Shown here: positions 8,111-36,924 of the stretch, in pieces | Numbering within the stretch: position 1 is the first letter of the stretch | How the letters are laid out: each line of letters begins with the position of its first letter | Assembly (NCBI RefSeq): GCF_029269265.1 | Contig: NZ_JARIXP010000005.1 | Location: 500,347-538,232, forward strand | Direction of reading: 5' to 3' | Source: Rheinheimera sp. 1928-s | Lineage (GTDB): Bacteria > Pseudomonadota > Gammaproteobacteria > Enterobacterales > Alteromonadaceae | Length of the DNA: 37,886 nt | Notes under the pieces: generated by a model | The model's database searches: none | Told to the model about the DNA's origin: nothing | Seen by the model: the letters and a program-made list of their open reading frames with translations, nothing else | Program-made: the position numbers and the translations under genes

Positions 8111-8299
8111 CGCTTTTCCACCACATTAATGCCAGATAACAGATCAAAGTATGCCAAACAGGCGTTTTGGGTAACCTGAATTGGACTCTCTGATCTGAAA
8201 AGTTAAACCTGGAGTCAATGCAAAGCTGCACGAATCCACAGCGACAGCAGTGCGACAAAGCTTTTATCGCACTGCACTCAGACAGGAAGTATGCTATCG

Positions 8300-8318
8300 A
8301 GAATAATTCTTATTTGCA
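8300..8318 (-). promoter_or_regulatory. Candidate Fur box upstream of tonB-exbB-exbD
   Basis: GAGAATAATTCTTATTTGC matches 12 of 19 positions of the classical GATAATGATAATCATTATC consensus by hand count and contains the frequent AATAATTCTTATTTGC core. A similar box lies at 36984-37002 before the siderophore receptor. Binding is inferred. Confidence 0.6.
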
Positions 8319-8374
8319 ACCAGTTTAATGCAGAGGGAACTTTGTATACCCGGTATACAGGCTCTTATTCATTT

Positions 8375-9032: not shown

Positions 9033-9938
9033 TTAACCGAAATTCTTGTCAGTTGAGTTCGGCAGCTCAGTGGCCTTGCAGAGTTGATTGCCACCCGCAT
9101 GTTTTGCTTTGTACATAGCCCGGTCTGCTGCGGCTAACAGACTGACTTGATCCTGGCCATGCTGCGGGAAAAGTGCAATACCAATACTGGCGGACAATTG
9201 CAGAGAGTGTTGTTCAAATAAAAACGGTGACTGAAGTTTAGTCAACAGGTTCTGCAAAATGCTTAATACTGCGGCTTGATCTGTCACTGCATCCATCACA
9301 ATAACAAACTCGTCTCCCCCTAAACGGGCCACGGTGTCGGTTTCACGCACTGAATGTAGCAAAAGTTCAGCTACTTTTTTCAAACATGAATCGCCAGCAG
9401 CATGGCCGTACTGGTCATTCACTTCTTTAAATTTATCTAAATCCACAAAACATAAAGCCAGCATGCCCTTCTCACGTCTGGCACGTGCTAATGACTGCTG
9501 TAGCCGATCGTCAAACAAAGCTCTGTTCGGTAATTGGGTCAGAGGATCGTAAAAGGCAATGTGCTGTAACTGCTTTAACAGTTGTTTGTGTTTGGTGATA
9601 TCGCGGGCTACAGCCACCCGTACTTTTTGATCTTCAGACCAGCGGGCAGACCACTGGATATGAGCAATCTGACCATCTTTGCGGATGTAACGATTTTCAA
9701 AATCGATTTTCTGATCGCCAGACATAATTTCGCTGGCGGCCAATAAAGTACGTTCTCTGTCATCCGGATGCACTAATTCAATCATGGGCCGACCGATCAT
9801 TTCAGTGCTTTTGTAGCCAAAAATTCGCTCACAACCGGAACTCAGATACAAGAAGTGGCCGTTGGCATCAACCACACAAATAGCTTCAAGCAATTGATCA
9901 ATATAGTCACTTAACGAACCTAACGAGGGGCTTGACAT
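9033..9938 (-). CDS. PAS-GGDEF diguanylate cyclase
   Basis: 301 residues, no membrane segment. PAS domain at about 12-118 (EAICVVDANGHFLYLSSGCERIFGY in outline; the PAC end is RVAVARDITKHK), then a GGDEF domain at about 128-292. The active-site motif GGDEF is intact at 207-211 and is preceded by RETD (198-201) exactly five residues upstream, which fits an RxxD inhibitory I-site. Predicted to make cyclic di-GMP from two GTP in response to a signal sensed by PAS, with product feedback. No EAL domain. It is transcribed in the same direction as the downstream tonB region but stands alone, and next to a two-PAS transducer, hinting at a motility/biofilm signalling pair. Confidence 0.92.
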   Translation of the reverse strand: MSSPSLGSLSDYIDQLLEAICVVDANGHFLYLSSGCERIFGYKSTEMIGRPMIELVHPDDRERTLLAASEIMSGDQKIDFENRYIRKDGQIAHIQWSARWSEDQKVRVAVARDITKHKQLLKQLQHIAFYDPLTQLPNRALFDDRLQQSLARARREKGMLALCFVDLDKFKEVNDQYGHAAGDSCLKKVAELLLHSVRETDTVARLGGDEFVIVMDAVTDQAAVLSILQNLLTKLQSPFLFEQHSLQLSASIGIALFPQHGQDQVSLLAAADRAMYKAKHAGGNQLCKATELPNSTDKNFG

Positions 9939-10085
9939 ATCCTACCTGTAAATAGAAGCTCGGATAACTGCGAGGAGCTCACCATGAGCTCCAGCTTTCA
10001 AACTTATCACTTTTACATCCTGCCACTCTTTACTGTGTCGCTGCAACACATTACCCGAAGTCATCCCAATTTCAGGCAACACTGT

Positions 10086-11393
10086 CTACGACGTTAAAAT
10101 AACATTAGAGATCTGACACACCACATTATCTGCACCGGCTTTAATATCTGACATCACATCTTCAACCTCGCTGATACGATCATTCACCTGCTGAGCAGAT
10201 TGATTTACATCAGTGATTACCGTCATCATGGCTTCAACAGTTTGCTGTGTAGACGAAATCACAGTCGCTATTTCACTGGTTGAATTGGCTGTTCTGGAAG
10301 CAAGACTGCGAACCTCATCGGCTACAACAGCAAAACCCCGCCCCATATCACCAGCCCGGGCAGCTTCTATGGCTGCATTTAAGGCCAGCAGGTTTGTTTG
10401 TTCTGCGATAGCTCTTATGGTGCTGACAATGACACCAATATTTTTTGCATGGGACGTCAGAGTTTCAGCTTGCTGATAGGCTCTGCTTATTTTTCTTACC
10501 ATAGCGTTGGTGACACTGACTGTTTCTTGTAATTTTTCGACCCCGGTTGCCACAATAACTGAAGTTTCTTCGGATGTGTTACCCGCCATATCGGCAGCAT
10601 GACGGACTGCCTGCTCTTTATTCACAGAGAGGGTTACATCTGAAGCAAATTTAATAACCCGTACTACATTGCCGTTATTGTCAAAAATAGGGTTATAGGT
10701 TGCTTCAATCCAAATCACCTGACCTTCTTTGGTAAAACGTTTGAAACGGCCAGATTTATGCTGACCCGCAGCCAATTCAAGCCAAAATTTTGGATTCATC
10801 TGATAAAACTCATCATCACAAAACATCCGGTGATGGCGTCCTGTTATTTCCGCAGCTTTGTAACGCATGGCTTGCAGGAAATTTGCGTTTGCTTCAAGCA
10901 CATTGCCTTGTGGATCAAAATGGATCACAGCCATAGAGCGATTAATAGCATCATAAACCGCATTTTTTGTATCCAGCTCAGTTTTAGAGGCTGTGACGTC
11001 AGATGCAATTTTAATAACTTTTTCTACGACTCCGTTGCTATCCCTGACAGGGAAATAAGTCGCTTCCAACCAGGCAATCTGGCCATCACCGCGGATCCGT
11101 TGAAACTGGCCGTCAAAACAATCACCATTTTTCAAAGCCTGCCAGAACTGACTGTATTCACGTGTATTTACATAATCTTTGCTACAAAACTTACTGTGAT
11201 GCTGACCTATGATGGCATCTGCCTGCACTCGCATCATGGTGTTAAACAAGGCATTACTTTTCAGCACATAACCATCGGGGCTAAACTCGATCACGGCTAA
11301 ATACTGTTCAATAGCCCCCAGATCGGCGTCGGCTATAGTCACGCGAGTTGTTAAGTTTTCTATCAGTTGTTTCGTTTTACGGCTAAAAATCAT
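10086..11393 (-). CDS. Soluble two-PAS methyl-accepting chemotaxis-type transducer (BdlA/Aer-like)
   Basis: 435 residues without transmembrane helices. Two PAS domains of similar sequence (about 25-135 and 147-255), each with a GxHHxxFC motif (GQHHSKFC at 63-70, GRHHRMFC at 185-192) and each ending in a KxASDVT block. A signalling domain follows, with the highly conserved hairpin [19 protein letters not shown] at 331-349, which contacts CheA/CheW. The layout and length match BdlA, a cytoplasmic biofilm-dispersion regulator, and related energy-taxis receptors. There is no HAMP domain. It probably reports redox or ligand state to a chemosensory array; cofactor is not determinable. Monocistronic, next to a diguanylate cyclase. 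Confidence 0.9.
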
Positions 11394-11856
11394 AGGTCAC
11401 CCCGTTGTATTGACATCACACTGTGATACATAAGTCAGAGCCTGCTTCTGCATCTGTAAACTCACTTACGCTTTCTGTCCTGATTCCTGCTGAACCTTAA
11501 AAACAGGCAATAGCGATACAACAAATGAGTGAATAGCCTGTAACAACATCCTTAGCGGCATAGTAACAAAGCAAAAGCGAAATATCAATAAAAATGATAA
11601 AAGTGATAAATGCATTCACCGTAACTATCTGGTGGACCACAGTCATTCACTGAATGCAGGTTTTTGTCATTGTCAGATCAGTAGAAATGCCCCAACTCAT
11701 CAGGCCAATGAAGAAAAAAGAAGGACGTTCAGAAAAGCAGGGGGACGCTGAAGTGGCCAGACTTTGGCCACTCATTTATGTCAGAAGCCAGAAGAGCCTA
11801 AGCTTTTGATCACACGCTCATTTGCAGTATTAAGTGAGGTACCTCTGACGAATACA
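11394..11856. other. 463-base gene-free stretch
   Basis: No supported gene. It holds an 8-bp hairpin AGTGGCCA/TGGCCACT (11752-11772, 5-nt loop, no T tract) just beyond the 3' end of the aldo/keto reductase remnant, and an inverted repeat TGCATTCA (11611-11618) / TGAATGCA (11651-11658). The A/T-rich part near 11580-11610 could hold the transducer promoter, but I cannot place -35/-10 elements with confidence. Confidence 0.4.
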
Positions 11857-12653
11857 TTAGTCCCATGCAGGCGAAAAATCCGGATTGGCCAAACGCTCAT
11901 TTCTATCCAGGCTGGTCAGTTGAGTCATGTTCTCTGAGGTAAGGTTCACAGCCAAAGCTGCTAAATTTTGTGCCAGATTCACTTTTTTAGTGGAAGACGG
12001 CATCACCACAAAACCTTGTTGTAACGACCAGGCTAACGCTACTTGTGCAGCCGTGATCTGATGCCCTGCCGCTATCTGTTGGATCAAAGGTTCACTCAGC
12101 ACCTTGCCATAAGCCAAAGGCATATAAGCGGTGATCTGAATGCCCTGCTCTTTTAAAAATGCCACCAGTGTGCGGTTTTGTAAAAACGGATGCACTTCTA
12201 CCTGATTGGTGGCTATTTCCTGCACTCCCACTGCATCTATCGCTGCTTTGGTTTGGCTTACAGTAAAGTTGGAAACGCCCATTAGCCGGGTTAATTTTGC
12301 TTGTTTTGCTTCAGCCAGAGCTTCAACATATGACTGCACTGGCACTTCATCTGGTAACGGCCAGTGCACCAAAGTTAAATCCACTTGATCCAGCTGTAAT
12401 TTTTCCAGGCTTTGTTCCAGACTGGCTTTGAGTTTGTTTTTATTTAAAAACTCCGTCCATATCTTGGTCGTAACAAAAAGCTCACTGGCTTTTATACCAC
12501 TGTCGCGGATAGCACGGCCGACATCCTGCTCATTGCCGTAAATCTGAGCGGTGGCTATAAGGCGGTGATTACCGATTGATAGGCATCTTCTCCTTTTAAG
12601 CGAAAAGTACCAGCGCCTAATACAGGAATAGTGTGTTTAAGAGTAGTGTTCAT
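11857..12653 (-). pseudogene. Aldo/keto reductase (2,5-diketo-gluconate reductase type), frameshifted
   Basis: Reading from ATG 12653 (GGAG upstream) gives a normal AKR start, HTIPVLGAGTFRLKGEDAYQSVITAL, ending at a stop at 12555-12557. The rest of the enzyme continues in another frame: IATAQIYGNEQDVGRAIRDSG, FVTTKIW, LVHWPLPDE, GVSNF, NQVEVHPF and the C-terminal part to 11857. Compared with the family, the segment between ITAL and ATAQIYG (normally ELGYRxIDTAxxYGNE) is short by several residues and out of frame, so a deletion of roughly 16 bases is likely. The catalytic Asp of the IDTA motif is Ala here (IATA). Tyr of IYGNE, Lys of TTKIW and His of LVHWP are still present. Likely inactive. 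A downstream GTG could start a 175-residue C-terminal fragment, which would lack the cofactor-site start of the barrel. Confidence 0.8.
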
Positions 12654-13467: not shown

Positions 13468-13561
13468 AGTTATCCTGAAGATCCGGGCATGATGCAAAAT
13501 GTGCGGATCAGTTTGCCGGACGGCAGCGATGGCGTCAGCAAAGGTCATCATTAAAGTTCAG

Positions 13562-13592
13562 ATGCGGTGTAAGTTGCTTACACCGCATTTTT
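13562..13592 (+). terminator. Rho-independent terminator after cobB
   Basis: Perfect 12-bp stem ATGCGGTGTAAG (13562-13573) / CTTACACCGCAT (13577-13588) with a 3-nt loop and five T (13588-13592). It lies about 95 bases after the cobB stop. Confidence 0.85.
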
Positions 13593-13724
13593 CCTGCCGT
13601 TAATCGTTTTTTTCTTATAGCTCCCTAGTTGTCTTTATTTTATCAACAAAAAGTAACCTTACTGAAACAAACAACAGCTCTAATGTCGCGGCAGATTTCT
13701 AATTAAACCGACATCGGAGTCAAA

Positions 13725-19645: not shown

Positions 19646-20632
19646 ATGATCCCTTTTTCTATTTTAGATTTAGCCCCTGTTGCTTCAGGCAGCACTATTA
19701 GCGACAGTTTTGCCAATAGCAAAGCCTTAGCGCAACTGGCAGACACTTTGGGTTACAAGCGGTATTGGCTGGCTGAACATCACAATATGCCGGGCATTGC
19801 CAGTGCGGCGACCTCCCTGCTGATCAGCCACCTGGCTGCTGCAACTTCTCGAATTCGCTTAGGGGCTGGTGGCATTATGCTGCCCAATCATTCACCTTTA
19901 GTGATAGCAGAACAGTTTGGCACTTTAGCCACTTTGTATCCGGACCGTATCGATTTAGGTGTAGGCCGGGCACCTGGCAGCGATCAGCAAACAGCACGGG
20001 CATTGCGACGTAACCGCATGGAAACAGAAGATCAATTCCCAACCGATATCCTTGAATTGCAGCAGTACTTTGGTCCGGTAAAGCCAAATCAGGCGGTACA
20101 AGCCGTGCCAGGACAAAACCTGAATGTGCCTCTATGGATTTTAGGTTCGAGTTTATACGGCGCTCAACTGGCCGCTCATTTGGGTTTACCTTATGCATTT
20201 GCCTCGCATTTTGCCCCAGCGATGATGGAACAGGCCGCTGCTTTGTATCGAAGAGAATTTAAGCCGTCGGCTCAACTGGATAAACCTTATCTGATGCTGG
20301 CGCTGAATGTATTTGCCGCAGAAACTACAGCAGAAGCCCAGCATCTGTTTACCTCACCTCAGCAGCAGTTTGTGAATTTGGTGCGGGGCGTACCGGGTTT
20401 GTTACCTGATCCAGTTGAGGATATGGACCAGATCTGGCAAGCACATGAAAAAGCTTATGTGGAAAAAGCCTTAGCCTGTTCGGTGATAGGTAATCCAGTA
20501 GAAGTAAAACAAGGTTTATTGAATTTTATCGAACAGCATCAACCAAACGAGCTGATGTTGACCAGCATGATGCACGACCCTAAAGCACGGCAAACCAGTT
20601 TTAGGATTGCGGCAGAGCTTATCTCTGATTAA
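19646..20632 (+). CDS. Luciferase-like (LLM class) flavin-dependent oxidoreductase, intact copy
   Basis: 328 residues. The YhbW-type pattern is clear: [14 protein letters not shown] at the start, [21 protein letters not shown] (34-54), [29 protein letters not shown], then [16 protein letters not shown] and [12 protein letters not shown]. These are FMN-binding TIM-barrel monooxygenase-like proteins; substrate unknown. GGAG lies 7 bases before ATG 19646. The last 615 bases (20018-20632) are duplicated at 22992-23606 with about 41 mismatches and no net indel. It forms the left flank of the variable locus that ends with the DUF481 gene. Confidence 0.92.
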
Positions 20633-20850
20633 TGCACTCCTATAACCTGTTCGCGCATTTTCCAGATCGCTTGTGCTTTTAACAGTTGAAGCGGTCTGCG
20701 GCCACTTTTTGTACAAAAAGCTATACATGCTACCGCTTACATTTAATTACAATTGAAAACAAAATTTAATAACCCAGTTGATTTTATCTACAAAAAAATG
20801 GCATTTAGACGATGCTTATATACAAAAGCATGCGACAAGACTCCAATTTA

Positions 20851-20884
20851 TTGCGACTAAAACACGTAAGATGAATAGTCGCAA
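20851..20884. promoter_or_regulatory. 9-bp inverted repeat in the leader of the subtilase gene
   Basis: TTGCGACTA (20851-20859) and TAGTCGCAA (20876-20884) are perfect inverted copies 16 bases apart, 36 bases before the subtilase ATG. It could be an operator or an mRNA hairpin near the ribosome-binding site; a related half-site TGCGAC lies at 20831-20836. Role inferred. Confidence 0.45.
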
Positions 20885-20919
20885 CGGAGAAAATAATAAT
20901 AATTAACGGGAACAACTAA

Positions 20920-22725
20920 ATGAAAATCAACAAGTTAAATCCAACTGCATTAGCAACTTTATTGGCTTTAGGCTGTGGCAGTGCGGCAGCTGCAGATCGG
21001 GTCATTATTCAGGTCGACAATGCCAACAAAGGTATGATCACTGCGTTAACAAAACAGCTGGGTGGTGAAGTAAAAGTAGATGCAGATGGTTTTATCGCAG
21101 CTCAGTTTAACGGCAGATCTGTAGATGACATCAAAGGTATTTTAAAGAACCCACATATCAAACTGATTGAAGAAGACTTAGTGCGTAAACCTATGGCGCT
21201 GTTTAACGACGACGCTGGCGATCCAATGCAGCAACAAATTACTCCTTATGCTGTATACCAGTCTCAGGCCAATCAGGTGCAATTTAACCCTGGTGCTGGC
21301 ATGAAAGTTTGTGTGATTGACTCAGGTTTAGACCAGTCTAACCCTGACTTTAACTGGGGTAGTATCACAGGAGATAACGACTCAGGCACTGGCAACTGGT
21401 ACGACAATGGTGGCCCACACGGCACTCACGTAGCAGGAACCATAGGTGCAGCAGACAACGGCATAGGTGTAATTGGCATGGCACCTGGTGTTGCTATGCA
21501 TATCATCAAAGTATTTAATGCGGAAGGTTGGGGTTACTCTTCTGATCTGGCTCATGCAGCACAAAAATGTAAAAACGCTGGTTCAAATATTATCAGCATG
21601 AGCTTAGGTGGTGGTGGTTCTAACACTACTGAATCTAACGCTTTTAAAACCTTTACTGATGGCGGTGGTTTAGTTTTAGCTGCTGCCGGTAACGATGGCA
21701 ATAACGTGCGTTCATACCCAGCTGGTTACCCTTCCGTCATGATGATCGGCGCTAACGACAATAACAACAACATTGCTGACTTCTCTCAATTCCCAAGCTG
21801 TACCCTGAATGGCCAGACTAATGAAACTTTCTGTGTGGAAGCCACAGCTGGTGGTGTTGATACTTTATCAACTTATCCAGCCGATATGGCAACCAGTGCT
21901 ACCTTAAGCGCCAACGGCACACCCTATGCAACTTCAGCGATGGAAAACCCGGGGTCTGCCAGCGCAGCTACTTTTTTCATGGGAACAGCTCAGAGTGTTA
22001 ACTCAGGTGCTGCCGGTAAAATCTGTATGATTGACCGTGGTGTGATTTCTTTCCACGATAAAGTGAAAAACTGTCAGAACTCTGGTGGTGTTGGCGCCAT
22101 ATTGATCAACAACACTGCAGGCATGTTGTACGGTACTTTAGGTGAAGGTTCGGCCAACACTACATCCATCCCAGCGGTAGGTGCTGCTTTTGAAGACAGA
22201 ACTGCTCTGCTGGCAGCAACTACTGCTTCTATCCACATTGGCACCAGCGATTATGGCCTGATGAGTGGCACTTCTATGGCAACTCCGGCTGTAGCTGGTG
22301 TCGCAGCTCTGGTGTGGTCAAACCACCCAAGCTGTACCGGAACTCAAATCCGTAATGCGTTAAAAGCGACTGCAAAAGACGCAGGCGCTGCTGGTAAAGA
22401 TGTGTACTTTGGTTACGGTATTGTTCAGGCTGCTGCAGCGCATCAGTATCTGACAACCAATGGTTGTGCTGGTGGTACTCCAACTCCGGGTATCAGCCTG
22501 ACGTTAAAATCAGTGAAAAACAAAGGTAAAAGTTATGTCGATCTGACCTGGGCAAGCGCCACAACCAGTTCAGTAGACCTATACCGCAACAATGTTAAAG
22601 TACTGACTACAGCTAACGACGGCGCGCACCGCGACGGCCCGTTAAACCGTGGTAGCTACAGCTATAAAGTTTGTGAAGCAGCAAGCACAACGAAGTGCAG
22701 TGCCAGCACTTCTATCAATCTTTAA
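20920..22725 (+). CDS. Secreted subtilisin-like serine protease (S8) with I9 propeptide and PA insertion
   Basis: 601 residues. Signal peptide 1-25 (SAAAAD end), I9-like inhibitory propeptide at about 27-90 (RVIIQVDNANKG ... HIKLIEEDLV), then the S8 catalytic domain with Asp134 (VIDSGLD), His167 (PHGTHVAGT), oxyanion Asn258 (AAAGNDG) and Ser452 (GTSMATP). A protease-associated domain is inserted between Asn and Ser (about 350-440, with GKICMIDRG and GVGAILIN). The C-terminal ~95 residues (507-601) look like a fibronectin-III-type or adhesive module (YVDLTWASATTSSVDLYRN), perhaps used for secretion or binding. Predicted extracellular endoprotease. It occupies the intergenic slot between the LLM gene and a DUF481 fragment and ends in a strong terminator. 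Confidence 0.95.
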   Translation: MKINKLNPTALATLLALGCGSAAAADRVIIQVDNANKGMITALTKQLGGEVKVDADGFIAAQFNGRSVDDIKGILKNPHIKLIEEDLVRKPMALFNDDAGDPMQQQITPYAVYQSQANQVQFNPGAGMKVCVIDSGLDQSNPDFNWGSITGDNDSGTGNWYDNGGPHGTHVAGTIGAADNGIGVIGMAPGVAMHIIKVFNAEGWGYSSDLAHAAQKCKNAGSNIISMSLGGGGSNTTESNAFKTFTDGGGLVLAAAGNDGNNVRSYPAGYPSVMMIGANDNNNNIADFSQFPSCTLNGQTNETFCVEATAGGVDTLSTYPADMATSATLSANGTPYATSAMENPGSASAATFFMGTAQSVNSGAAGKICMIDRGVISFHDKVKNCQNSGGVGAILINNTAGMLYGTLGEGSANTTSIPAVGAAFEDRTALLAATTASIHIGTSDYGLMSGTSMATPAVAGVAALVWSNHPSCTGTQIRNALKATAKDAGAAGKDVYFGYGIVQAAAAHQYLTTNGCAGGTPTPGISLTLKSVKNKGKSYVDLTWASATTSSVDLYRNNVKVLTTANDGAHRDGPLNRGSYSYKVCEAASTTKCSASTSINL

Positions 22726-22736
22726 ATCACTGGATT

Positions 22737-22765
22737 GGGGCTGAGTCAAAACTCGGCCCCTTTTT
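22737..22765 (+). terminator. Rho-independent terminator of the subtilase gene
   Basis: GGGGCTGAGT (22737-22746) pairs with ACTCGGCCCC (22751-22760), one G-T wobble, loop CAAA, then five T (22761-22765). The T tract touches the stop codon of the DUF481 fragment. Confidence 0.9.
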
Positions 22766-22971
22766 CAAAACTTAGCACCTATACTAAGTTTTTGATGTAA
22801 ATCGCGGCTGCCGGAAGAGATCACCAAATCCTGTGGCAAAACCACATCAATTTTAGACCAATCAAAATCCACCGAAAATGACAAGCGGATACGCTCTGTC
22901 AGGTAATAACTCAGCCCTGTACTCAGATTCACATCCTGTTTAAATTGGATAAAGCTCACAGGTTGATTCAC
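22765..22971 (-). pseudogene. DUF481 protein, 3' fragment (duplicated remnant)
   Basis: 207 bases matching the end of the intact DUF481 gene (24412-24618), with 7 mismatches by hand count and no indel. It encodes the last ~68 residues (from about NQPVSFIQFK to LSIGAKF) including the stop, but has no start. Upstream on this strand the match ends abruptly at 22971, where sequence of the LLM gene begins. It is the left half of the chimeric scar between the two cargo segments. Not expected to be functional. Confidence 0.92.
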
Positions 22972-23606
22972 GGGCTTTACGGCGCAACCGCATGGAAACT
23001 GAAGATCAGTTCCCAACCGATATCCTTGAATTGCAGCAATACTTTGGTCCGGTGAAGCCAAATCAGGCGGTACAAGCCGTGCCAGGACAAAACCTGAATG
23101 TGCCTCTATGGATTTTAGGTTCGAGTTTATACGGCGCTCAACTGGCGGCTCATATGGGTTTACCTTATGCATTTGCCTCGCATTTTGCCCCAGCGATGAT
23201 GGAACAGGCCGCTGCTTTGTATCGAAGAGAATTTAAGCCATCGGCTCAACTGGATAAACCATATCTGATGTTGGCGCTGAATGTATTTGCCGCAGAAACT
23301 AAAGCAGAAGCCCAGCATCTGTTTACCTCACCTCAGCAGCAGTTTGTGAATTTGGTAAGAGGTGTGCCGGGTTTGTTACCTGATCCAGTTGAAGATATGG
23401 ACCAGATCTGGCAAGCACATGAAAAAGCTTATGTGGAAAAAGCTCTGGCCTGTTCAGTTATAGGCAATCCGGCTGAAGTGAAAAAAGGTTTGCTGGATTT
23501 TATTGAACAAACCAATCCGGACGAGCTGATGCTCACCAGCATGATGCACGACCCTAAAGCACGGCAAACCAGTTTTAGGATTGCGGCAGAGCTTATCTCT
23601 GATTAA
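22972..23606 (+). pseudogene. LLM flavin-dependent oxidoreductase, 3' fragment (duplicated remnant)
   Basis: Starts at residue ~119 of the intact protein ([13 protein letters not shown]) directly after the DUF481 fragment and runs to the same stop codon. From ATG 22992 a 204-residue product could be read, but it lacks the N-terminal third of the barrel and has no ribosome-binding site. Over 615 bases I count about 41 mismatches to 20018-20632, clustered between positions equivalent to 20370 and 20565; the last ~60 bases are identical. The reading frame is fully preserved and many changes are synonymous, so it diverged while still under selection or came from a relative with an intact gene. 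Confidence 0.92.
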
Positions 23607-23921
23607 AAATGGGTTCAGCTCAGGATCAAGGCTTGGAACTTATTGCATCAATCTATTGGACTGGCCTTGGCTTGTTGATGTGCAGAATTTTTATTGCCAT
23701 CGCCTGATAAAATGCAATAAAAAACAATGCAAAAACAAGTAGTTAATGGGGAAGCAACCAGAACAAAGAACAAAGCCTGACCCAAAAAGAATACAAAATA
23801 AGTTGCATTTGTTAATTTGGCGTGTCACTGTTCAAGCTGAATTCCTAAAATAGTTAAATTTAGCGATTCAAAACTATCCTGCCCGTTGAGATCCAAACGA
23901 AACTATAAAAGGAATTTATTT
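23607..23921. other. 315-base upstream region of the small secreted-protein gene
   Basis: A/T-rich and without a gene. It bears no similarity to the segment after the intact LLM gene (20633 onward), although both follow the same LLM stop codon. A/T-rich stretches near 23790-23880 may contain the promoter; none is assigned. Confidence 0.5.
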
Positions 23922-24365
23922 GTGAATATCAAGATATATCATAGGTTAGTGTTGATTTTTGGCTTGTGCTTTCTTGTTGGAAATGCTGAAGCAAACACAA
24001 CGCCACTGCGTGAATGCGTTGCAGGAGCATGCAGTGAAATTGTTCATAACAAGGAATTGGGTAAGGCAACAGTTACCGTTTGGGACGAAAAAGGAAACGT
24101 TATTTCGGCCGATACGTTCGATTTGGATAGTTCGGCAGAATTGGTTCATGTGAGCACAAGCGACAGTGTGGATTCTACAACGCCTGAGCATGCTCCTGCT
24201 GCGCCTTGCGATAAAGGTCCGTGCGCAACCGCAATATCACAAACATATGAAACAGCAACCCATGTTGTTACAGTTACCTACACTTTCATTTACTTTAATG
24301 GTCAGTTGATGGACGTGAATGCAACCTCAGTAGAAAATAGTTTACCGCTTGCAATGACAAGATAA
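23922..24365 (+). CDS. Small secreted protein of unknown function with two C-x-x-G-x-C modules
   Basis: 147 residues from GTG 23922, chosen because AAAAGGA lies 8 bases upstream and the protein then begins with a clean signal peptide (about 1-24, MNIKIYHRLVLIFGLCFLVG then NAEA). A TTG 12 codons upstream would extend it without a ribosome-binding site. The mature part has two related segments: CVAGAC (about 31-36) followed by a charged beta-like stretch KATVTVWDEKGN, and CDKGPC (about 95-100) followed by HVVTVTYTFIYFNGQ, separated by an acidic Ser/Thr/Pro linker. Each could hold one disulfide. I do not recognise the family. It sits alone in the second cargo slot, looks A/T-richer than its neighbours and ends in a terminator, so acquisition by transfer is plausible. 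Confidence 0.75.
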   Translation: MNIKIYHRLVLIFGLCFLVGNAEANTTPLRECVAGACSEIVHNKELGKATVTVWDEKGNVISADTFDLDSSAELVHVSTSDSVDSTTPEHAPAAPCDKGPCATAISQTYETATHVVTVTYTFIYFNGQLMDVNATSVENSLPLAMTR

Positions 24366-24373
24366 GGCTTTTA

Positions 24374-24406
24374 GGGTCAGATGGTTATCTGCCAACAATC
24401 TGACCC
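24374..24406 (+). terminator. Terminator-like hairpin after the small secreted-protein gene
   Basis: Perfect 9-bp stem GGGTCAGAT (24374-24382) / ATCTGACCC (24398-24406) with a 15-nt loop, followed by CCATTT. The T tract is short. It ends 6 bases from the stop codon of the convergent DUF481 gene, the same placement as the subtilase terminator relative to the DUF481 fragment. Confidence 0.6.
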
Positions 24407-24411
24407 CCATT

Positions 24412-25401
24412 TCAGAATTTCGCACCTATACTAAGTTTTTGATGTAAATCGCGGCTGTCGGAAGAAATCACCAAATCCTGTGGCAACACCACATCAATTT
24501 TAGACCAATCAAAATCCACCGAAAATGACAAGCGGATACGCTCTGTCAGGTAATAACTCAGCCCTGTACTCAGATTCACATCCTGTTTAAATTGGATAAA
24601 GCTCACAGGCTGATTCACAGGTTTTAAGTAACTGCCTTCGCTGAAAATCTCAAAACTGCTACCGGTCCATAAATAACGCAAGTCCCATTCCAGCTGAATA
24701 TGACGAAAATCCAGACTTTGTCTGTCACCGACAAAAAGTTCTAATCCAGCACTTTCTTTAAAGTAAGTTCGTTTTAAACCAGCCAGAGCTATCAGTTCCA
24801 CCCTCAGCTCTTTGGTATCATAAAAGCTATAACCCAGGCCTGAACTTAAATCGATATTTTTGTAGTCTGAGCTGACAAAATCCTGCGAGTAGTCGATTTT
24901 ATTCCGCCAGAATAGCTGAGGCTGAAAAAAATAGTCAGCACCTGGATTCAGCAGATATTTATGGGTTTTCTTTAACGAGTTACTGGTTTCGTAATCGTAT
25001 TTGGCATCAAAGGTCAGCCGTAAATTGTCATCACGTTGCTCAAAAGCAGTTTTAAAGCCCAGATTATCCGACCTGCTACTACTGCGCTTTTTACCCGCAG
25101 TTAAATCTATGCTGGAGTGCCTTACGGCCTGGTTTTTAACCACTGGGGCTTCCGGCTGGGCAGCCGCAGGAGTCACTTCAACAGCTGCAAGTTTTGGCTG
25201 TTCAATACGCTCAATCTGAGCTCTGGGTAATTGCACTTGCCCTGAATAAGGTAAGTTCAGAAATACAATCTTTTTGTCCTGCTGGGTGATCATACCAGTT
25301 AATCTGTCACCATTTTTCATCCAGACCACTGCAGCCTGCCCTGCAGACGCTTCACAGCATATACACCACAACAAAGCCACAAAAAGCAGTGTTTTCACCA
25401 C
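24412..25401 (-). CDS. DUF481 (YdiY-like) outer-membrane-type protein, intact copy
   Basis: 329 residues: signal peptide about 1-21, an N-terminal beta segment VVWMKNGDRLTGMITQQDKKIVFLN resembling an SH3-like/LSm-type domain (about 25-70), a Pro/Ala linker (about 72-100), then a DUF481 beta-rich domain to the end (TAFEQRDDNLRLTFDAKYDYE, GLGYSFYDTKELRVELIAL, and a final strand ending in Phe). Alternating aromatic strands suggest a small outer-membrane barrel. Function unknown; E. coli YdiY is acid-inducible. Its last 207 bases are duplicated at 22765-22971. It is the right flank of the variable locus. Confidence 0.85.
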   Translation of the reverse strand: MVKTLLFVALLWCICCEASAGQAAVVWMKNGDRLTGMITQQDKKIVFLNLPYSGQVQLPRAQIERIEQPKLAAVEVTPAAAQPEAPVVKNQAVRHSSIDLTAGKKRSSSRSDNLGFKTAFEQRDDNLRLTFDAKYDYETSNSLKKTHKYLLNPGADYFFQPQLFWRNKIDYSQDFVSSDYKNIDLSSGLGYSFYDTKELRVELIALAGLKRTYFKESAGLELFVGDRQSLDFRHIQLEWDLRYLWTGSSFEIFSEGSYLKPVNQPVSFIQFKQDVNLSTGLSYYLTERIRLSFSVDFDWSKIDVVLPQDLVISSDSRDLHQKLSIGAKF

Positions 25402-34072: not shown

Positions 34073-34636
34073 TTATTGCATTTTTTTCCCCGCTTCGCTG
34101 GCTTCCATTAATTTCGCCAGTCTGGATAAACGGGTTTCAGCTTTTTTGGCGCTACAGATCCAGTGCAGCAGCACCTTTTGATAACCTGGTGCTGTGGTTA
34201 CAAAAAACGACCAGGCTGCAGCATTGCTCTGAAAAATTGTTAGTTCTTCTGCTGACAAGCTGGCCACTGTCTCCTGCTCATGCGAGTAGATTGCAGATTT
34301 TTGCTCTGTTCTGTAAGAGAAGGCTAACTCCCCTGCTGCAGTCATCCGGCCTTGAGCCCGCAAGTTTTCCATCTTATCTATATTGATTTGACTCCAGATG
34401 GAGCTCTTTTTACGTGGCGTAAAACGAATGCTGTAGCTCTGTTCATCTATACGCTTACGTTTGCCATCGATCCAGCCAAAACACAAAGCTTCATCTACAG
34501 ATTCAGACCAGCTCATACACGACTTATCCGTAGCGACCTTGTGAAAGCCTACTAATAGCTCTGACGCAGTGGCTGCGTGTAACTCCAGCCAGCATCGGAA
34601 GGCTTGTGGGCTGTCAAAAAATAATGGGGCAGTCAT
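34073..34636 (-). CDS. YdeI/OmpD-associated family protein (bacteriocin-protection type)
   Basis: 187 residues from ATG 34636, where the protein starts MTAPLFFDSPQAFRCWLELH as in relatives; GGTGAG lies 4 bases upstream. Longer in-frame GTG and ATG starts exist at 34666 and 34648 but add unconserved residues. Conserved blocks: ELLVGFHKVATDKSCMSWSESVDEALCFGWIDGKRKRID, SIRFTPRKKSSIWSQINIDK, and a C-terminal helical part ending with AETRLSRLAKLMEASEAGKK. Members are linked to resistance against cationic peptides or bacteriocins in some bacteria, but biochemical function is unknown. Cytoplasmic. Confidence 0.85.
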   Translation of the reverse strand: MTAPLFFDSPQAFRCWLELHAATASELLVGFHKVATDKSCMSWSESVDEALCFGWIDGKRKRIDEQSYSIRFTPRKKSSIWSQINIDKMENLRAQGRMTAAGELAFSYRTEQKSAIYSHEQETVASLSAEELTIFQSNAAAWSFFVTTAPGYQKVLLHWICSAKKAETRLSRLAKLMEASEAGKKMQ

Positions 34637-34706
34637 CAGGCTCACCATTTCATCAGAAAACTGCACTCTAACTGACTCAGTGGCTGAACAACAAGAAGGA
34701 AAAAAG

Positions 34707-34737
34707 AAAACCCCGGGACTTTATAACCCGGGGTTTT
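34707..34737 (-). terminator. Rho-independent terminator of the siderophore receptor gene
   Basis: Perfect 11-bp stem AAAACCCCGGG / CCCGGGGTTTT (34707-34717 and 34727-34737) with a 9-nt loop; on the minus strand a T-rich run follows. It lies 28 bases after the receptor stop. Confidence 0.9.
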
Positions 34738-34764
34738 ACATCAAAGCCACGATAAAAGTGTCTA

Positions 34765-36924
34765 TCAGAACTTATAACGCAGGTTTGCACTGACAGAACG
34801 GCGCTGACCGTAGAAACAATCCCCACGATTCAGACAGGAGGTGATCACTGTTTTGTCAGTCAGGTTTTGCACCTGCAGGCTTAGATCGTAATCTCCCATT
34901 TCATAGCCCAGCATCGCATCCAGCAAGGTATAAGAAGGCGTGGTCAGCGGGTCGTTCAGCACCACACCATTCATCGCGACATAAGCGCTGCCATCCGATG
35001 TTTTACCTACATGACGCACACCACCACCCACTTTCATGCCATCAACCATAGCCAAACGCCAGGTCGCCCAAACAGAAGCCTGTTGTTCCGGCACTGCGGA
35101 TAAATCAGCCCCTTCTTCACCCAATGTATTACTTTGGCTGACATAAGCGTCGGTATAGGCATAGCTGGCATAAATATCCAGCTGCTGCCATGCCAGCTGA
35201 GCTTCCAGTTCCACACCTTTAGCTGTCACTTCCCCACCCTGAATTTGGCCATTTGGATCAATCAGTTCCGGGTCACCCAACTGGTCAGCCGCTAAAGTGG
35301 TAGTGCGGTTTTGTTCTTTAATTTGATAGATAGCAGCCGTTAACAGATGTTCTGTATTGTCAGGCTGATATTTCACACCAGCTTCCCACTGCTCGCCGGT
35401 TTGAGGCTTAAAGGCTTTACCATAAGCATCAGCGCCGAGCAGTGGTTCAAAGGATTCGCTGTAGCTAATGTAAGGCGAGACGCCACCATCCATCAGATAC
35501 ATCAGGCCCAGACGACCTGTAGTGGCATACTGAGATTCAGCCTCAGAGCCTTCGGTACGGCTAACTGTGCGGTCACGGCGTAACGCCGCAGACACCATCC
35601 AGCTATCGGCAATTTTCATATTGTCTTGCAGATACAGGCCGCTCTGATACACCTTGGTGGCTGCATAATCAGTCACATCAGCATCTGTTGGTAAATCTGT
35701 CACCTGACCATACACAGGGTTGTATAAGTCCAGTAAACCACCCGCACCATAAAATGAGTCATTGTCGGTGTAGGCATTCTGGTAATCAAAACCCATCACC
35801 AGCTTGTGCTCTATTGAGCCTATTTGTAAATCACCATGCAACTGAGCATCACTGGTGATAGAACGTGCATCGGCATTACTCAAGTAAGCCACACGGGAGA
35901 TAGTGCGGTTGTCATCCTGAAACACTGGCGGCCAGCCATACATAGTGTCGTAATCGGCGTGACTGTCACTGTACCGGCTGGCGACACGCACACCCCAATC
36001 ATCCGTCAGCTGGTGTTCCACAATCACAGTAGCGGATTGTTGCTCTGTGTCATAACGGTCAAAACCTGGTTCGGAGACAAAACGGTTGCTTGGGATCTGA
36101 CCAAACTCATTGGGTAAAATAGTGCCCTGATGCGGGAAAAACTGCGTACTGGTGCCTGATTCCCTTTCCTGCCAGTTGCCAAGCACTGTCACTTTAGTGT
36201 CGTCACTGGCCTGCCAGCTAAAAGACGGTGCTAAGGCTTTGCTGTTGTCTGGCACAAAGTCAGTCTGAGTATCACTGTCGCGCCATACCCCCACCAAGCG
36301 GCCTTGCAGTGTTTCATCGTCATTCAGTGAACCTGTGATATCACCAGCCAGTTGTTTACGTGAATAGTTACCCAATTGCGCCCATAACTGACCGCTGGTG
36401 GCTGCTTCAGGTTTTTTGCTGACTAAATTGACGATACCGCCAATAGAACCCTGACCATACAAGACTGAACTTGGGCCTTTCAGAATTTCAATTTGCGACA
36501 AGCCAAAAGGCTCTGTGCGCACATTGTTGTAATAACCAAACAAGGATTTCAGACCATCCAGATACTGCACTGGCGACACACCACGGATCACAGACCAGTC
36601 ACCCCGGGTATCCAGACCATAAGGACCATTGTATAAACCCGACACGTAACCCAAAGCATCCTGAACCGTCAGCGCGCCTAAATCAGCAATACGCTCTTCG
36701 GTCAGTACTGACACGGAGAGCGGAGTTTCGATAATAGGAGTATCAGACTTCGCACCTGAAGCACTGACATAAGAAATTAAACCACGCTGGCTTTTTATCG
36801 TGATCACTTCAATTTCTTTTTCATCAACGGCTTTGCTGTCATCTGCCAGTAGGGCTGCAGAATAACAACTTGTGGCCACAGCCAAAGCAACTAAGGATAT
36901 TTTGTGGAGTTTAAACAATGACAT
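34765..36924 (-). CDS. TonB-dependent siderophore receptor (ferrichrome-type family)
   Basis: 719 residues. Signal peptide about 1-27; a TonB-box-like EIEVITIKSQ (about 37-46); plug domain with ETPLSVSVLTEERIADLGALTVQDAL, IRGVSPVQYLDGL, EPFGLSQIEILKGPSSVLYGQGSIGGIVNLVSK, the hallmark of FhuA/siderophore-type receptors; then a 22-strand-type barrel ending in NLTDKTVITSCLNRGDCFYGQRRSVSANLRYKF. Cys pair near the C-terminus (SCLNRGDC) resembles that of hydroxamate and ferrichrome-type receptors. It imports a ferric siderophore across the outer membrane using TonB-ExbB-ExbD, which is encoded at 6277-8110. A Fur-like box lies about 60 bases upstream. The exact ligand is not determinable. Confidence 0.93.
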   Translation of the reverse strand: MSLFKLHKISLVALAVATSCYSAALLADDSKAVDEKEIEVITIKSQRGLISYVSASGAKSDTPIIETPLSVSVLTEERIADLGALTVQDALGYVSGLYNGPYGLDTRGDWSVIRGVSPVQYLDGLKSLFGYYNNVRTEPFGLSQIEILKGPSSVLYGQGSIGGIVNLVSKKPEAATSGQLWAQLGNYSRKQLAGDITGSLNDDETLQGRLVGVWRDSDTQTDFVPDNSKALAPSFSWQASDDTKVTVLGNWQERESGTSTQFFPHQGTILPNEFGQIPSNRFVSEPGFDRYDTEQQSATVIVEHQLTDDWGVRVASRYSDSHADYDTMYGWPPVFQDDNRTISRVAYLSNADARSITSDAQLHGDLQIGSIEHKLVMGFDYQNAYTDNDSFYGAGGLLDLYNPVYGQVTDLPTDADVTDYAATKVYQSGLYLQDNMKIADSWMVSAALRRDRTVSRTEGSEAESQYATTGRLGLMYLMDGGVSPYISYSESFEPLLGADAYGKAFKPQTGEQWEAGVKYQPDNTEHLLTAAIYQIKEQNRTTTLAADQLGDPELIDPNGQIQGGEVTAKGVELEAQLAWQQLDIYASYAYTDAYVSQSNTLGEEGADLSAVPEQQASVWATWRLAMVDGMKVGGGVRHVGKTSDGSAYVAMNGVVLNDPLTTPSYTLLDAMLGYEMGDYDLSLQVQNLTDKTVITSCLNRGDCFYGQRRSVSANLRYKF

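What the first reader, a model, noticed from the sequence alone, without database searches (positions are those of the whole stretch)
20018..25401. Two alleles of a variable intergenic slot captured in tandem
Order seen: intact LLM gene, subtilase cargo (20633-22764), DUF481 3' fragment fused to LLM 3' fragment, second cargo with a small secreted-protein gene (23607-24411), intact DUF481 gene. Homology of the flanks stops exactly at the LLM stop codon and at the DUF481 stop codon, and the two cargos share nothing visible. A simple tandem duplication would give identical cargos. The better reading is that the space between these two convergent genes is a swap site whose content differs among strains, exchanged by flanking homology, and that a crossover at short homology joined two versions. 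There is no transposase or integrase. Each cargo carries one exported protein and a terminator abutting the DUF481 stop.
Basis: partly seen in the sequence, partly recalled or inferred. Interest (0 to 1): 0.75.

Follow-up and report, generated by a model that had tools for sequence, protein, structure and literature searches.

The report
Two slot alleles joined in tandem
In a Rheinheimera-like bacterium, two versions of one small stretch of chromosome, each carrying a different exported-protein gene, sit side by side, apparently because recombination recently added a second lineage's version instead of replacing the first.

Summary
LLM and DUF481 are convergent neighbours in all 11 genus relatives that carry this LLM gene (of 21 relatives searched). 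Their gap holds a subtilase gene in 6, the small secreted-protein gene in 1 (the sister species) and no gene in 4; none holds both. The window holds both, separated by a DUF481 3' piece fused to an LLM 3' piece.

The truncated pieces differ from the intact copies mostly at synonymous sites (LLM' branch outside an imported tract 12:1; DUF481' 8:1), with similar synonymous divergence (0.17 and 0.20). They were therefore working genes until recently: a recent join of two standing alleles, not an old decayed duplication. The join lies in an 11-base word that alleles of both genes nearly or fully supply.

The "swap site" reading needs toning down. The subtilase tree agrees with the upstream tree at its supported pairs, so it looks like the old resident. 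Only two cargo types were seen, and six other gaps in the window vary by more than 1 kb.

Best mechanism: a second allele added by one homologous crossover plus one short-homology join. Known kinds of event, an unusually clear case. No reads were seen.

The parts
19646..20632 (+). Intact LLM gene (MsnO8-type luciferase-like monooxygenase); its part from 19995 on is the left copy of the LLM repeat
   Evidence: PF00296 E 1.1e-40; TIGR03558 442.7 bits, above its cut-off; repeat D1
20633..22764 (+). Cargo 1: upstream region, subtilase gene, terminator
   Evidence: Subtilase in the slot of 6 of 11 relatives
20920..22725 (+). Subtilase gene, 601 aa, S8 peptidase with PA domain
   Evidence: PF00082 and PF02225; best solved-sequence match 1v6c alkaline serine protease, E 5.2e-73
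22737..22760 (+). Terminator hairpin of cargo 1, abutting the DUF481 stop
   Evidence: 10-pair stem plus T run; fold z-score -5.1 for 22730-22772
22757..22979 (-). DUF481' : 3' fragment of DUF481 (about 71 codons plus 8 bases beyond the stop), left copy
   Evidence: 95% identical to 24404-24626
22969..22979 (.). Join of DUF481' to LLM'; CACGGGCTTTA is matched at 9 of 11 bases by the intact copy of each gene here, at 11 of 11 by LLM of relative G015 and at 10 of 11 by DUF481 of G001, G010 and G015
   Evidence: counted by eye from its output
22969..23606 (+). LLM' : 3' fragment of LLM, right copy; its part matching gene positions about 826-915 is a tract like that of relative G010
   Evidence: 93% identical to left copy; tract tree support 95/88 and 99/96
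23607..24411 (+). Cargo 2: upstream region, small secreted-protein gene, hairpin
   Evidence: Aligns, with short flanks, to the slot of sister species G001 at 89.8% over 938 positions
23922..24365 (+). Small secreted-protein gene, 147 aa, GTG start, hydrophobic N-terminal segment, two Cys-x4-Cys motifs
   Evidence: No Pfam, PHROGs or PADLOC match, one weak NCBIfam match far below cut-off; relatives 85% (G001) and 40% (G167)
24374..24406 (.). Hairpin GGGTCAGA...TCTGACCC; the same pattern occurs 70 times in the genome
24412..25401 (-). Intact DUF481 gene; 24404-24626 is the right copy of the DUF481 repeat
   Evidence: PF04338 E 1.1e-16

Best explanation
This is a small natural merodiploid. Two alleles of the gap between LLM and DUF481, one with the subtilase and one with the small secreted-protein gene, came from two lineages about as far apart as the window's species is from its sister. 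They were recently joined in one chromosome. Most likely DNA of a second lineage paired with the chromosome by homology in LLM or DUF481. The other side was closed at a short shared word (CACGGGCTTTA, up to 11 bases) between the DUF481 3' part and the LLM middle. That happened either directly (one-sided homology with illegitimate joining) or because the fragment first closed into a circle and then entered by one crossover. Ordinary double crossover would have swapped the cargo; this event added it. Shown: the anatomy, slot alleles in relatives, recent selection on both truncated pieces, similar divergence of the two pieces, mosaic flanks. Inferred: the source, the order of steps, the exact short homology, and that either cargo is expressed.
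For: Slot alleles: 6 of 11 relatives subtilase, 1 small gene, 4 no gene, none with both. Window LLM and DUF481 copies are each other's nearest kin (supports 96/93 and 92/90), with sister G001 next (62/78 and 88/84). Divergence of the truncated copies is mostly synonymous: LLM' branch outside the imported tract 12 to 1 (p 1.6e-7), DUF481' 8 to 1 (p 3.4e-5, not polarised); dS 0.172 and 0.201, dN 0.006 in both, close to window-G001 dS at rluA, MgtC, LLM and FAS (0.17-0.22). A few cargo-linked bases continue into DUF481: the left copy ends like subtilase carrier G012, the right copy like G001. Short shared word at the join. A ComEC-type gene is present.
Against: The last 72 bases of both LLM copies are identical, and so are 122 bases of both DUF481 copies (mismatch lists), so the copies are not two wholly independent alleles: conversion or further crossovers are needed. 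In the imported tract the LLM' branch has 12 synonymous and 8 non-synonymous changes, a much weaker bias. The intact copies here share only 7 of the 11 join bases with each other; the full 11 rests on an allele in another species. Window-G001 dS varies among genes (0.13 to 0.55). One-sided illegitimate recombination is reported as rare and as usually giving a deletion (PMC3240628). DNA uptake by this species is not shown; ComEC-type matches also occur in E. coli. Reads were not seen. A recent two-step route gives the same end product.
Confidence: 0.7

Rival explanations
1. Two steps: first an ordinary tandem duplication of LLM'-cargo-DUF481' at the short shared word, with identical cargos; then ordinary homologous exchange replaced one copy's cargo and flanks with another strain's allele.
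For: Homologous exchange in these flanks is seen (imported tract in LLM', DUF481 5' part like G010, G004 DUF481 3' end like G002). Identical stretches of 72 and 122 bases between copies.
Against: Needs two events; none of the 11 relatives shows a tandem.
Confidence: 0.2
2. Old duplication: the tandem predates the split from sister species G001, which later lost the subtilase unit by recombination between the LLM copies; the pieces have since drifted.
For: G001 carries exactly the product expected from deletion between the LLM copies; copy divergence (dS 0.17-0.20) is like window-G001 divergence at several genes.
Against: Pieces free of selection should collect non-synonymous changes; outside the imported tract they did not (12:1 and 8:1), and LLM' keeps an open frame. 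The copies are sisters to each other, apart from G001, unless conversion kept them alike.
Confidence: 0.08
3. Assembly artefact: two strains or two loci were falsely joined.
For: Draft genome of 24 contigs; reads not available. In another genome (G004) two contig ends at this locus overlap with variant letters, so the region can trouble assemblers.
Against: The join is inside a 581-kb contig; the copies differ by 5-7% apart from stretches of 72 and 122 bases, so most reads place uniquely; the overlap at the join is very short; listed contamination is 0.24.
Confidence: 0.06

Closest known systems
Effector-immunity gene arrays of Vibrio cholerae T6SS clusters (PMC5361080, passages seen)
   Same: A new module is added at a locus by homology on one side and, as proposed there, illegitimate joining on the other, leaving remnants of the old allele and arrays of unlike modules
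   Different: There the old effector is displaced and immunity genes kept; here two whole cargos with unrelated exported proteins are kept and both flanking genes are partly doubled
Hotspots without mobile elements exchanged by recombination at flanking core genes (PMC5635113, passages seen)
   Same: Variable content between conserved genes, no integrase, recombination signs in the flanks
   Different: Here two cargo types plus no-gene slots among 11 relatives, and one genome holds two alleles in tandem
Single crossover of a shortened, re-closed circle giving duplications of the homologous locus in E. coli (PMC3240628, passages seen)
   Same: Product has a partial duplication of the homologous locus around the added DNA; a PCR product for it in 56 of 60 clones there, 14 sequenced
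   Different: Laboratory plasmid donor; here a natural chromosome-to-chromosome event is inferred
Merodiploids made by transformation in Streptococcus pneumoniae (PMC3784515, passages seen)
   Same: Transformation can create tandem duplications that hold two different alleles
   Different: Those are about 100 to 900 kb and form between repeats; here about 3 kb, bounded by a short word

Membership tests
Variable slot exchanged by flanking homology (hotspot without mobile element) | Different content between the same conserved genes in related genomes | tested here: met
   6 subtilase, 1 small gene, 4 no gene in 11 relatives
Variable slot exchanged by flanking homology (hotspot without mobile element) | No integrase or transposase in the slot | tested here: met
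   No such Pfam or PHROGs match in the two cargo genes; other ORFs of 100 aa or more in the slot overlap the truncated pieces
Variable slot exchanged by flanking homology (hotspot without mobile element) | Recombination in the flanking core genes | tested here: met
   Conflicting trees within LLM and DUF481
Variable slot exchanged by flanking homology (hotspot without mobile element) | More turnover and recombination than the rest of the genome | tested here: inconclusive
   Six other gaps in the window vary by more than 1 kb; upstream and downstream control trees also conflict on G004
Heteroallelic tandem merodiploid | Two different alleles of one locus in tandem, separated by a join of the two flanks | tested here: met
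Heteroallelic tandem merodiploid | Alleles were functional until joined | tested here: met
   Synonymous excess in both truncated copies, weaker in the imported tract of LLM'
Homology-facilitated illegitimate recombination product | One homologous end and one end joined, mostly at 3-10 bases of shared sequence (PMC3240628) | tested here: inconclusive
   Join word of up to 11 bases, but the parental alleles are not known
Homology-facilitated illegitimate recombination product | Insertion generally coupled with a deletion of similar size (PMC3240628) | tested here: not met
   No loss at the locus is seen; material is doubled. So it is not filed as a typical product; a re-closed circle gives duplication

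The most novel reading that the evidence does not exclude
The tandem is a normal, recurring half-way state of slot evolution in these bacteria: a cell first adds the new allele, then recombination between the LLM copies or between the DUF481 copies drops one cargo, so a clone can segregate cells with either cargo. G001 would then be a lineage that resolved to the small gene, and the other carriers lineages that kept or resolved to the subtilase.
Probability: 0.12. Interest if true: 0.6.

Novelty: new member of a known kind. Interest (0 to 1): 0.37.

Why it matters
Exchange of accessory genes between conserved neighbours is usually inferred from before-and-after genomes. Here both alleles are caught in one chromosome, and the codon pattern in the truncated copies marks the join as recent. 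It gives a testable intermediate: the LLM and DUF481 repeats (about 640 and 220 bases) should resolve to either single-cargo state, so the rate of cargo exchange could be measured in culture.

Tried and rejected
Second tandem in relative G004: two LLM 3' ends on contigs C192 and C45 looked like another tandem, but the contig ends overlap by 276 bases at 98.6% over one and the same slot, so it is an assembly break.

Recent cross-species import of the subtilase: rejected as the main story; its tree agrees with the upstream tree at its supported pairs, and its dS runs roughly with that of neighbours. The window-G012 value (0.288) is a little low against rluA 0.437 and MgtC 0.347, so a modest import is not excluded. 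Against a purely vertical picture: parts of the region just upstream of the subtilase are closer to G021, G016 and G015 than to G012.

Mobile carriage of cargo 2: no match on plasmids at E 1e-5; in viral contigs 4 stretches matched a pattern, none encoding a relative; no PHROGs match.

Defence reading: PADLOC gives a general subtilase model (E 1.9e-15) and a very weak IetS match for the subtilase, a weak oxidoreductase match for LLM, none for the other two; not pursued.

Function of the small protein: a single-sequence fold had mean pLDDT 60 and was not searched further; it suggests an N-terminal helix and beta strands.

Rfam: no match at gathering score in the window. A paper search on Rheinheimera with natural transformation gave 3 listings, none on the topic by title and abstract start; a search for additive-integration terms gave 1 unrelated paper.

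Two of the 80 were close (Alishewanella longhuensis 81%, Rheinheimera oceanensis 79%); neither shows DUF481 or either cargo in its 21-kb locus. The other 78 were not examined for slot content. Of 6 genomes of a neighbour genus with LLM at 80-83%, 4 were looked at, and none has DUF481 or either cargo nearby.

The codon test assumes that all single-base changes are equally likely; a bias to transitions would lower the expected non-synonymous share (0.78) somewhat; this was not modelled.

Full report
The window reads LLM (19646-20632, +), subtilase (20920-22725, +), a 3' piece of DUF481 (-) joined to a 3' piece of LLM (+), a small secreted-protein gene (23922-24365, +), and intact DUF481 (24412-25401, -). 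A repeat scan of the whole window reports two direct repeat families of 60 nt or more, and both belong here. The LLM copies are 93.3% identical over 639 positions, the DUF481 copies 95.1% over 223. The stretch matches its own genome once, inside a 581-kb contig.

Relatives. In the genus 22 genomes were searched, the window's own included. LLM matches came from 13, one of them weak (G003, E 7e-5), which leaves 11 relatives with the true gene. All 11 have DUF481 next to it, convergent. For G004 the slot was read at a contig break where two contig ends overlap. The gap holds the subtilase in 6 (G012, G014, G021, G016, G015, G008), the small gene in 1 (G001), and no gene in 4 (G010, G002, G004, G007); in G007 the two stop codons overlap (the last read by eye). 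None has both. The small protein was found in 2 of 22 genus genomes, the window's and G001, and in 6 of 196 genomes of a wider set that includes these, the other 4 in the same order and 3 of those weak. The subtilase has orthologues of 74-76% identity in 5 other genus genomes, with no window flanking gene found in the 13-kb stretches read.

Which cargo is old. The subtilase tree pairs window with G012 (100/100) and G021 with G016 (99/99), in agreement with the upstream tree; its other branches are weak. Its synonymous distances run roughly with those of neighbours: window-G012 0.288 against 0.437 (rluA) and 0.347 (MgtC); window-G021 0.731 against 0.742 and 1.113. So the subtilase looks like an inherited resident. 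On the tree of rluA, MgtC and LLM its presence needs 4 changes, no more clustered than shuffled labels, consistent with repeated loss or replacement. The small gene, in this genus, is shared only with the sister species G001.

Recent join of two alleles. If the truncated pieces had been idle since an old duplication, their changes should be mostly non-synonymous (expected share 0.78). On the LLM' branch, polarised with G001 and leaving out an imported tract, there are 12 synonymous and 1 non-synonymous changes (p 1.6e-7). In the tract itself there are 12 and 8; over all of LLM' 24 and 9 (p 1.0e-9). In DUF481', not polarised, there are 8 and 1 (p 3.4e-5). Left-right dS is 0.172 in LLM 349-822 and 0.201 in DUF481 3', with dN 0.006 in both. 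That is like window-G001 dS at rluA (0.174), MgtC (0.223), LLM (0.215) and FAS (0.197), though ArsR (0.131), OYE (0.404) and DUF481 (0.546) differ. In the trees the two copies are nearest kin (96/93 for LLM 346-825, 92/90 for DUF481 3'), G001 next (62/78 and 88/84). So two alleles, separated for about the age of the species split and working for most of that time, were joined recently. Against a simple version: the last 72 bases of the LLM copies and 122 bases of the DUF481 copies are identical, which asks for later conversion or further crossovers.

Flank recombination. LLM' carries a tract (gene positions about 826-915) grouping with G010 (95/88, then G012 at 99/96), while the left copy groups with G001 (83/78). 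The first 300 bases of window DUF481 group with G012/G010 (100/100), the next part with G001 (99/98). The DUF481 3' end of G004 (no-gene slot) groups with G002 (no-gene slot; 99/97), whereas its first 300 bases group with G016 (87/91), a subtilase carrier (identities). This is what exchange of slots by crossover in DUF481 would leave, although the two no-gene slots themselves hold different hairpins. The control is sobering: upstream and downstream trees also disagree on G004, so recombination is common here in general.

How special is the slot. Of 30 neighbouring gene pairs in the window, 28 could be measured in at least one of nine relatives. The LLM-DUF481 gap has a length range of 3733, but six other gaps vary by more than 1 kb, two of them by 3139 and 4553. 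Against sister G001 the window has two other stretches without a match in the part fetched, about 9.9-12.6 and 34.6-36.9 kb. Variable gaps are ordinary here; the tandem of two alleles is not, being seen in none of the 11 relatives.

The join. Bases 22969-22979 (CACGGGCTTTA) can come from either gene: LLM of G015 matches 11 of 11, of G021 and G016 10, the window's left LLM 9; DUF481 of G001, G010 and G015 match 10, the window's right copy 9 (counted by eye from its output). The intact copies in the window share only 7 with each other. A short-homology join is thus likely, its exact length unknown.

Mechanism. A donor piece that pairs by homology in LLM (or DUF481) and closes its other side at the short word adds a unit instead of replacing it. 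PMC3240628 (passages) reports that in E. coli 56 of 60 clones gave a PCR product for a duplication of the homologous locus, 14 sequenced, explained by a shortened and re-closed circle with one crossover. It describes illegitimate products in competent species as insertion with deletion, mostly with 3-10 shared bases, and rare. PMC5361080 (passages) proposes homology-facilitated illegitimate recombination for arrays of unlike immunity genes in Vibrio. PMC3784515 (passages, some from the abstract) shows merodiploids made by transformation. PMC5635113 (passages, some from the abstract) reports hotspots lacking mobile elements with recombination at flanking core genes. The own genome has a ComEC-type gene; that alone does not show uptake, since E. 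coli also matched in the control list.

Cargos. The subtilase is an S8 peptidase with a PA domain, nearest solved sequence 1v6c, an alkaline serine protease. The small protein has a hydrophobic start and two pairs of cysteines (C32, C37; C96, C101; invariant in the 3 sequences aligned) and no known family. Cargo 1 ends in a strong terminator. Cargo 2 ends in a hairpin of a dispersed kind, 70 places in the genome against 0 for the reversed control.

Verdict: real, well supported as a recent joining of two slot alleles, made of known kinds of recombination; interest moderate.

Noticed in passing
window 24374-24406; 70 places in G000; G004 slot (L055 from 179); G015 slot end (L051 from 7253): A dispersed hairpin kind GGGTCAGA...TCTGACCC (70 against 0 for the reversed control) ends cargo 2 and makes up most of the no-gene slot of G004; a shorter relative ends the G015 slot. 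Six Y1_Tnp matches in the genome, some at contig ends, hint at a REP-like family.
   Followed up: partly
window 9900-12600 and 34600-36900: Two further stretches of the window have no match in the fetched part of sister G001.
   Followed up: no
window gaps 8111-8374 and 13468-13724: The first gap is over 3 kb in 6 of 9 relatives; the second ranges from 257 to 4810 bases across 9 relatives.
   Followed up: no
window 25102-25401: First 300 bases of DUF481 group with G012/G010 (100/100), while the next part groups with G001 (99/98): a recombination breakpoint inside the gene.
   Followed up: partly
LLM gene positions about 376-675 (left copy, window 20021-20320): The window is unusually close to G021 here (95% in four windows of 75), although the LLM 5' part is 85%: perhaps an older import tract.
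   Followed up: no
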